DNA of 64,000 bases from Brucella pseudogrignonensis. Its GTDB lineage: Bacteria; Pseudomonadota; Alphaproteobacteria; Rhizobiales; Rhizobiaceae. The notes beneath the pieces were generated by a model. The model did not search any database and was not told the DNA's origin. It worked only from the letters and a program-made list of their open reading frames with translations. This document shows, piece after piece, positions 21,308 through 21,989 of the stretch. Positions within the stretch are counted from its first letter, which is position 1; each line of letters opens with the position of its first letter. The translations under genes were made by a program, and so were the position numbers. The DNA lies in contig NZ_JAVLAT010000001.1 of NCBI RefSeq assembly GCF_032190615.1, positions 2,240,501 through 2,304,500 on the forward strand, in the 5' to 3' direction.

Positions 21308-21379
21308 GGCAATCCCATACCTCCTTTGCATGCCGCCTTCAATGGGAGAAGAGCGTCGCGGTAGTGTAAACAGGTGCCA

Positions 21380-21428
21380 GAAAAACTAATGGCATCCATC
21401 GCGGGAGGAGGTGCGATGGATGCCATTA
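21380..21428 (-). terminator. Terminator hairpin of the DUF1127/RNA locus
   Basis: On the minus strand a perfect 16-bp stem (21413-21428 with 21387-21402) closes a 10-base loop containing CCTCCTCCC, and GTTTTTC follows the stem. It is the last of four such hairpins and looks like an intrinsic terminator that also shows the anti-SD motif in its loop. Confidence 0.85.
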
Positions 21429-21540
21429 TTGTCAGACCGGAATTGGGAGGAGGAGAGTCCGGTCCTATAGTATCGCAAAGCTTGGGAGGAGGAGTGCTTT
21501 GCGACGAGCCGAGCCTGATGGGAGGAGGATTCAGGCCCAG
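21387..21540 (-). ncRNA. Four CCTCCTCCC-loop hairpins (CcsR/cuckoo-type small RNAs)
   Basis: Read on the minus strand there are four consecutive stem-loops, each with CCTCCTCCC in the loop. The loop motifs lie at 21520-21528, 21484-21492, 21445-21453 and 21403-21411 (spacing 36, 39 and 42). Stems: 21513-21518/21531-21536, 21473-21481/21496-21504, 21435-21441/21458-21464, 21387-21402/21413-21428. The stem sequences differ from each other while the loops are identical, so the loop is the selected part. CCUCCUCCC is complementary to Shine-Dalgarno sequences. The arrangement downstream of a DUF1127 gene matches the CcsR1-4 small RNAs of Rhodobacter and the cuckoo RNA family described for alphaproteobacteria. 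With two hairpins per RNA, two small RNAs are expected, cut from one transcript. Confidence 0.85.
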
Positions 21541-21572
21541 CAAATTTGAATTCGTTTTAAAGTCCGTTAGAC

Positions 21573-21719
21573 TTAACGACCCTTGGACTGACGCGCTACA
21601 TATGGGATGTCTGCGCGGGAAATGCCAAGATCATTGAGTTCGCGAGTCGAAAGCTGGTTAAGCTCGTTGACTGTGTCGCGGTAACGGCGCCAATTGCTGT
21701 AAGAGCGGATAAGGTTCAT
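21573..21719 (-). CDS. DUF1127 small Arg-rich protein
   Basis: 48-residue protein, too short for usual gene calling. It starts MNLIRSYSNWRRYRDTVNEL and continues with NQLSTRELNDLGISRADIP, the hallmark of DUF1127 (YjiS-like) proteins. AAGGA precedes the ATG by about nine bases. In Rhodobacter sphaeroides the equivalent protein CcaF1 is an RNA-binding protein involved in maturation of the CcsR RNAs; here too the four CCTCCTCCC hairpins start ~33 bases after the stop. In other species DUF1127 proteins affect phosphate, carbon and RNA metabolism. The upstream region 21720-21989 between this gene and the DUF2157 gene must hold two divergent promoters; no convincing -35/-10 pair was assigned. Confidence 0.93.
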   Translation of the reverse strand: MNLIRSYSNWRRYRDTVNELNQLSTRELNDLGISRADIPYVARQSKGR

Positions 21720-21989
21720 GGTGGTATTCCTTCATCGTTGAGGAACTGATTATCAATTCATCTTGTTTGTTGCTCATGATATAACGCATTGTTTTCGCTA
21801 CTTGCAGACCCAAGTTTGCATAGCTGCTTTGCGGGCTCCGCACGGCGCTCTAAATCGATTAGACTGGTGAAGCACAAAATTGCCGTAATGGGTTAGAACG
21901 TATTTGTTTGCCGGCTGGTGAGTTTCCTATATGTTCTTAGCCACTTGGTAGGTTGATACCGTCAACGGATAGATTCTTCGGGAGTTGTT

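What the first reader, a model, noticed from the sequence alone, without database searches (positions are those of the whole stretch)
21380..21719. DUF1127 gene followed by four anti-Shine-Dalgarno hairpins: a CcsR/cuckoo-type RNA locus
On the minus strand a 48-residue DUF1127 protein is followed by four stem-loops. Each shows CCTCCTCCC in the loop, while the stems have unrelated sequences; the last one has a 16-bp stem and a T-run and doubles as terminator. Seen directly: four identical 9-base loops at regular 36-42 base spacing. Known: in Rhodobacter the CcaF1 (DUF1127)-CcsR1-4 operon has this layout and is induced by stress sigma factors; related cuckoo RNAs occur in other alphaproteobacteria. 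Inferred: here two small RNAs, two loops each, are cut from the DUF1127 mRNA and target mRNAs carrying GGGAGGAGG-like ribosome sites. The locus would be missed by protein-based annotation.
Basis: partly seen in the sequence, partly recalled or inferred. Interest (0 to 1): 0.88.

Follow-up and report, generated by a model that had tools for sequence, protein, structure and literature searches.

The report
Small-protein gene with ribosome-site-blocking RNA tail
A tiny bacterial gene is followed on the same strand by four RNA hairpins that each carry a sequence able to mask the start sites of other genes' messages; this is a known arrangement in related bacteria, and its control region suggests which regulator switches it on here.

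Summary
On the minus strand a 48-aa DUF1127 ORF (21719-21573) is followed by four stem-loops with CCTCCTCCC in the loop; the last looks like a terminator. All 35 genomes held for the genus (Brucella in the wide sense) keep ORF and array, and the stems covary.

The kind is known. Rfam calls hairpins 2-4 as the sRNA family ar14 (83.3 bits, cut-off 58.8). DUF1127 plus such hairpins has a published name, the CIN1 locus of "cuckoo" RNAs, as in Rhodobacter CcaF1-CcsR.

RNA annotation does see the locus. It fits ar14 better than CcsR1 (29.6 bits, cut-off 65.3). The promoter shows no RpoH or EcfG site (0 of 35) but an invariant box fitting the published VtlR/LsrB box (35 of 35). The same box precedes all four ar14 loci of this genome (or their DUF1127 gene), a third DUF1127 gene, and the AbcR gene beside a vtlR-like gene; it is absent before the other AbcR gene. 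So the "small protein" genes of the VtlR regulon probably also make anti-Shine-Dalgarno RNAs. Processing into two RNAs of two loops is untested. New member of a known kind, with a testable regulatory link.

The parts
21817..21831 (-). LysR-type (VtlR/LsrB-like) box CAAAGCAGCTATGCA, 111 bases before the DUF1127 ATG
   Evidence: fits the box GCAT-N3-TG-N3-T of PMC7486931 read on the other strand and CAATGCAGCCATGCA of PMC12595884 with 2 mismatches; GCAGCTATGCA in 35 of 35 genus genomes
21779..21784 (-). TTATAT, candidate -10 element
   Evidence: [CT]TATAT at this aligned place in all 35 rows of the upstream alignment; the consensus promoter scan did not list it
21573..21719 (-). DUF1127 small protein gene, 48 aa
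   Evidence: Pfam PF06568 63.2 bits; ORF kept in 35 of 35
21508..21541 (-). hairpin H1, loop CCTCCTCCC; outside the ar14 match, inside a sub-threshold CcsR1 match 21545-21467
   Evidence: 8 of 11 pairs with a change on both sides
21472..21505 (-). hairpin H2, loop CCTCCTCCC
   Evidence: 6 of 10 pairs with a change on both sides (helices 2 and 3)
21433..21465 (-). hairpin H3, loop CCTCCTCCC
   Evidence: 2 of 8 pairs with a change on both sides
21388..21427 (-). hairpin H4, loop CCTCCTCCC, followed by a T-rich stretch; probable terminator
   Evidence: 6 of 15 pairs with a change on both sides
21387..21512 (-). match to Rfam RF02344 ar14 (H2-H4)
   Evidence: 83.3 bits, gathering 58.8

Best explanation
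This is a CIN1-type operon: a DUF1127 gene whose 3' tail is an ar14/cuckoo RNA array with four anti-Shine-Dalgarno loops, in a Brucella-group genome. Transcription starts below a LysR-type box and is most likely switched on by VtlR (LsrB). One transcript would run through the DUF1127 gene and stop at H4. An endonuclease, probably RNase E, would cut the tail free. The loops, presented on stems of no fixed sequence, would pair with GGGAGGAG-like ribosome sites and stop translation of those messages. Shown here: ORF, hairpins, covariation, conservation, Rfam membership, the box and its placement. From published relatives: VtlR/LsrB activation, RNase E processing, silencing through the loops. Inferred: that all of this holds for this locus.
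For: Rfam ar14 over cut-off. DUF1127 by Pfam. 35 of 35 genus genomes keep ORF, array and box. Covariation. Upstream of trmFO in 80 named relatives, 48 loci hold at least one array and 28 DUF1127-then-array chains occur; 24 of 28 have the VtlR box within 170 bases before the first DUF1127 gene, against 4 of 112 control windows (p = 6e-19, rows not independent). A first pass that measured from the nearest DUF1127 gene gave 16 of 28; the anchor was then moved to the first gene of each chain. In this genome the box stands before 4 of 4 ar14 loci (window and C2:1077623 before their DUF1127 gene, C1:1734060 and C2:954898 before the array), before the DUF1127 gene at C1:1731382 and before the AbcR gene next to trxB and a LysR gene; it is absent before the second AbcR gene and from the 2.7 kb round the DUF1127 gene at C2:913825. 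Papers: LsrB activates NfeR1, an ar14 RNA, and its loops silence mRNAs (PMC10746234, passages and section 5; PMC7143759, passages); VtlR activates DUF1127 genes in Brucella (PMC12595884, passages) and directly activates one in Agrobacterium (PMC7486931, passages and sections 9, 10); DUF1127-CcsR is one transcript cut by RNase E (PMC10253847, passages).
Against: No RNA data: neither the transcript nor its cutting is shown. Only 8 of 32 stand-alone arrays near trmFO have the box (control 4 of 128), and 4 of 28 DUF1127-array chains lack it; 35 of 68 DUF1127-only chains have it (control 22 of 264), so the box may belong to the DUF1127 gene rather than to the array. Twelve of 35 genus arrays have fewer than four exact CTCCTCCC loops (10 have three, 2 have two), and two have lost the motif in H4. 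The box is defined from few published sites. NfeR1's LsrB site is written differently in PMC10746234 (TGCA-N6-GCAT) and that form was not tested. Transport genes are not significantly enriched among GGGAGGAG sites.
Confidence: 0.8

Rival explanations
1. A CcsR-like locus proper: two RNAs of two hairpins each, driven by a stress sigma factor.
For: H1+H2 match CcsR1 at 29.6 bits, E 2e-5. H1 and H2 are only 2 bases apart, while the H2-H3 and H3-H4 linkers are 5-6 bases and A/T-rich, so a cut between H2 and H3 is possible.
Against: CcsR1 is far below its cut-off of 65.3, ar14 above its own. 0 of 35 RpoH-like or EcfG-like sites, 35 of 35 LysR-type boxes (consensus patterns recalled). Spacings of H2-H4 (37, 42 in L041) equal those of three-loop arrays in relatives (37, 40-42).
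Confidence: 0.1
2. The array acts only in cis, as terminator and 3' stabiliser of the DUF1127 message, with no partner messages.
For: It lies 27-70 bases after the stop codon in 29 of 35 genus genomes (111-216 in the other six) and ends in a strong hairpin with a T-rich tail.
Against: A stabiliser would need the stems, not the loops: the stems change freely with compensation while the loop motif is kept. Two of the four ar14 loci of this genome stand alone without a DUF1127 gene. The loops of NfeR1 silence mRNAs (PMC10746234, PMC7143759, passages).
Confidence: 0.07
3. The array encodes a proline-rich peptide: in the window all four motifs lie in one open frame and read Pro-Pro-Pro (ORF 21543-21055).
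For: The open frame is in the ORF list; spacings 36, 39, 42 are all multiples of three.
Against: Three or more exact motifs lie in one open frame in only 14 of 35 orthologous arrays; stems change by pairing, which coding does not explain.
Confidence: 0.02

Closest known systems
ar14 sRNA family (Rfam RF02344), with NfeR1 of Sinorhizobium meliloti
   Same: hairpins with the anti-Shine-Dalgarno motif in the loops and stems of variable sequence; LsrB/VtlR-type control; same gene neighbourhood upstream of trmFO as the arrays of Sinorhizobium glycinis, which score 120 and 106 bits
   Different: NfeR1 is described as a separate three-loop sRNA with its own promoter; here the array has four loops and directly follows a DUF1127 gene. 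NfeR1's NtrC site is reported not evident in Brucella (PMC10746234, section 5)
CIN1 locus / cuckoo RNA (Reinkensmeier and Giegerich 2015; paper not held, known here through PMC10253847 and PMC7143759)
   Same: short DUF1127 gene associated with CcsR-like anti-Shine-Dalgarno hairpins
   Different: nothing found that excludes it; whether this species was in that study is not known to me
CcaF1-CcsR1-4 operon of Rhodobacter sphaeroides
   Same: DUF1127 gene, then hairpin RNAs, then terminator (PMC10253847, passages)
   Different: RpoHI/RpoHII promoter and four two-loop RNAs there; VtlR-type box and four single hairpins here; CcsR1 model below cut-off
SmelA075 and SmelA099 of S. meliloti
   Same: three and four hairpins with CCUCCUCCC loops (PMC3927594, section 21)
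   Different: described there as trans-encoded sRNAs; no DUF1127 mention (term search)
VtlR-activated small-protein genes of Brucella abortus/melitensis and atu1667 of Agrobacterium
   Same: short DUF1127 genes under a VtlR box (PMC12595884, PMC7486931)
   Different: the passages and sections that I saw treat them as protein genes and do not mention a hairpin tail

Membership tests
Rfam ar14 | covariance-model score over the gathering threshold | tested here: met
   83.3 bits against 58.8, model 1-123 complete
Rfam ar14 | three hairpins with the anti-Shine-Dalgarno motif in every loop | tested here: met
   H2-H4; a fourth hairpin H1 is extra
Rfam ar14 | expressed as a trans-acting sRNA | not testable with these tools
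   no RNA sequencing data
CIN1 locus (cuckoo RNA with DUF1127) | short DUF1127 gene next to CcsR-like hairpins | tested here: met
   definition taken from one sentence of PMC10253847
CIN1 locus (cuckoo RNA with DUF1127) | match to the thermodynamic matcher of the cuckoo paper | not testable with these tools
   paper not held
Rfam CcsR1 | score over the gathering threshold | tested here: not met
   29.6 bits against 65.3
CcaF1-CcsR operon | RpoHI/RpoHII promoter | tested here: not met
   0 of 35 by recalled consensus patterns; simple patterns can miss real sites
CcaF1-CcsR operon | RNase E cutting of one precursor | not testable with these tools
   needs RNA data
VtlR/LsrB regulon | VtlR box before the transcription start | tested here: met
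   35 of 35 genus genomes; AbcR next to the vtlR-like gene as positive control
VtlR/LsrB regulon | binding and dependence on VtlR | not testable with these tools
   bench work; published for relatives only

The most novel reading that the evidence does not exclude
In Brucella-group bacteria VtlR/LsrB runs one regulon of anti-Shine-Dalgarno RNAs: AbcR and four ar14 arrays (13 loops in this genome), two of them carried as 3' tails of DUF1127 messages. The 'small protein' genes of the VtlR regulon would then act largely through their RNA tails, and NfeR1 of the rhizobia would be the same array after separation from its DUF1127 gene, which still lies nearby with a VtlR box of its own.
Probability: 0.45. 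Interest if true: 0.6.

Novelty: new member of a known kind. Interest (0 to 1): 0.4.

Why it matters
Published work on VtlR in Brucella reports that DUF1127 proteins are strongly VtlR-dependent yet that their deletion or supply does not explain the vtlR mutant (PMC12595884, passages). If the same transcripts carry ar14 arrays, part of the regulon's output is RNA, and constructs that hold only the coding part would miss it. The link between two separately studied lines (VtlR small proteins; NfeR1/ar14 RNAs) can be tested in existing RNA data.

Tried and rejected
Considered and set aside: stress-sigma promoters (0 of 35); a proline-rich peptide (14 of 35 in frame); mir-124, sR9, sR19 and other weak Rfam hits in the same stretch, chance or strand artefacts of a strong hairpin; the 87-aa plus-strand ORF 21374-21637, antisense to the array.

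Led nowhere or weak: likeness of the loops to the tail of 16S rRNA could not be checked, the pattern gave 0 matches in the genome, so either my recalled pattern is wrong for this genome or the stretch is masked. GGGAGGAG before ATG: 24 places, control 0; 2 lie antisense to ar14 arrays, 5 are copies of one 17-aa ORF, 2 are ORFs of 3 and 11 aa, 15 are ORFs of 100 aa or more, 13 distinct; 5 of 13 are uptake proteins. Control sites: TAAGGAGG 6 places against 4; GAAGGAGA 38 places against 3, of which 30 were given as loci and examined, 13 distinct ORFs of 100 aa or more, 1 uptake protein. p = 0.16.

Not done: structure prediction, a covariance model of the four-hairpin form, boxes of the three longer DUF1127 genes listed.

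Full report
What is there. The minus strand of 21831-21377 holds, in order, a LysR-type box (21831-21817), a TTATAT element (21784-21779), a 48-aa DUF1127 ORF (21719-21573) and four hairpins H1-H4 (21541-21388) with CCTCCTCCC in each loop, the last followed by a T-rich stretch. Downstream on the same strand lies trmFO (NCBIfam 680.9 bits, cut-off 262). The four motifs are the only ones in the 64-kb window, 0.125 being expected per strand.

Which genome. The TrmFO protein is 95% identical to that of Brucella rhizosphaerae, the nearest named record returned (the search may leave out the window's own genome). The genome has 4.45 Mb in 7 contigs. I place it in Brucella in the wide sense.

Known family. 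Rfam ar14 covers H2-H4 at 83.3 bits (cut-off 58.8); CcsR1 covers H1-H2 at 29.6 bits (cut-off 65.3). Over 60 relatives, 45 have an ar14 match at E 0.001 or better and 37 a match over the cut-off, with strict filters; 0 of 14 control genomes do. This genome has four ar14 loci; two directly follow a DUF1127 gene (window; C2:1077623) and two stand alone (C1:1734060; C2:954898).

Conservation. All 35 genomes held for the genus, this one included, have the locus (six completed). The ORF, at least two exact CTCCTCCC motifs and the core GCAGCTATGCA occur in 35 of 35. Four exact CTCCTCCC motifs occur in 23, three in 10 and two in 2; in L160 and L162 the H4 loop has lost the motif. On an alignment of 35 arrays (34 distinct) the structure of the window's array has 95.5% of cells paired and 22 of 44 pairs with a change on both sides, against 10.1 in shuffles and 2-5 when slid. 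The structure was taken from one of the rows, which favours it on cells paired; the free RNAalifold structure agrees, with 18 of 38 pairs changed on both sides.

Neighbourhood across the order. In 80 named trmFO loci, 48 hold at least one array of two or more motifs within 60 bases. With DUF1127 genes found by a regular expression, there are 28 DUF1127-then-array chains (in 27 loci: Brucella, Phyllobacterium, Mesorhizobium, Pseudaminobacter, Aurantimonas, Aureimonas, Chelativorans, Oricola, Roseibium, Pleomorphomonas and others), 32 array-only chains and 68 DUF1127-only chains. In Sinorhizobium, Shinella and most Rhizobium loci the arrays stand before separate DUF1127 genes. Arrays range from two motifs to nine; Aurantimonas L073 has five pairs, Pseudaminobacter L053 three triples.

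The promoter. The published VtlR box is GCAT-N3-TG-N3-T (PMC7486931, passages) or CAATGCAGCCATGCA (PMC12595884, passages). The window's CAAAGCAGCTATGCA fits the first on the other strand and differs from the second at 2 of 15 places. Of 28 DUF1127-array chains, 24 have the box within 170 bases before the first gene, against 4 of 112 control windows; of 68 DUF1127-only chains 35 (control 22 of 264); of 32 array-only chains 8 (control 4 of 128). Measured from the nearest DUF1127 gene instead, it was 16 of 28; the change of anchor was made because Mesorhizobium-type loci have two DUF1127 genes in a row. The rows are related, so the p-values overstate.

Checks within the genome. The box also precedes the other three ar14 loci (C2:1077623 before its DUF1127 gene; C1:1734060 and C2:954898 before the array) and the DUF1127 gene at C1:1731382. 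The AbcR gene (ar15) that lies next to a LysR gene and trxB, the published vtlR neighbourhood, has the box at -63; the second AbcR gene has none in 170 bases. The 2.7 kb round the DUF1127 gene at C2:913825 has none. This agrees with reports that VtlR activates abcR2 and three DUF1127 genes while a fourth lacks the motif (PMC12595884, PMC9751625, passages). That these are the same genes was not tested by sequence; NCBIfam has no model that names the LysR gene as VtlR. Three longer DUF1127 genes were not examined.

How it most likely works. VtlR activates one transcript; the DUF1127 protein is made from its 5' part; the tail is cut free and its loops pair with ribosome sites. LsrB activation and loop-dependent silencing are published for NfeR1 (PMC10746234, passages and section 5; PMC7143759, passages), RNase E cutting with the help of the DUF1127 protein for CcaF1-CcsR (PMC10253847, passages). 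DUF1127 proteins can also act through protein contact (PMC12501420, passages), so the protein need not serve the RNA. Targets here are only sketched: GGGAGGAG before ATG at 24 places against 0 in the reversed pattern, with no significant excess of uptake genes.

In print. The pairing of DUF1127 and such RNAs (PMC10253847, passages) and four-hairpin forms (PMC3927594, section 21) are published. Searches of the held library listed no paper holding VtlR or LsrB together with both DUF1127 and cuckoo RNA or NfeR1; PMC12595884, PMC11975290 and PMC12501420 hold VtlR or LsrB and DUF1127 but not the RNA terms, PMC10746234 the reverse. The cuckoo paper of 2015, the CcaF1 paper of 2021 and the Brucella small-protein paper of 2018 are not held, and the first VtlR paper was not looked up, so earlier notice cannot be excluded.

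Noticed in passing
window 21543-21055, minus strand: An open frame reads all four motifs as Pro-Pro-Pro; kept in one frame in 14 of 35 orthologous arrays.
   Followed up: yes
L121 (own genome C1:1731382): Third short DUF1127 gene with the VtlR box and no hairpin array; its leader holds GGGAGGAAGG and a three-codon ORF.
   Followed up: no
L122 (own genome C2:1077408): The second DUF1127-ar14 locus lies beside a glycine riboswitch and glycine-cleavage genes, about 5.5 kb from an AbcR gene.
   Followed up: partly
L073, L053, L117: Long arrays: five two-motif units in Aurantimonas, three triples in Pseudaminobacter, nine motifs in Pleomorphomonas.
   Followed up: no
own genome C1:10375, C2:1372901, C5:5435, C6:13264, C7:15105: The same GGGAGGAGGCAAGATATG and 17-aa ORF in five copies; a 60-aa ORF is likewise repeated near contig ends, perhaps a repeated mobile element.
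   Followed up: no
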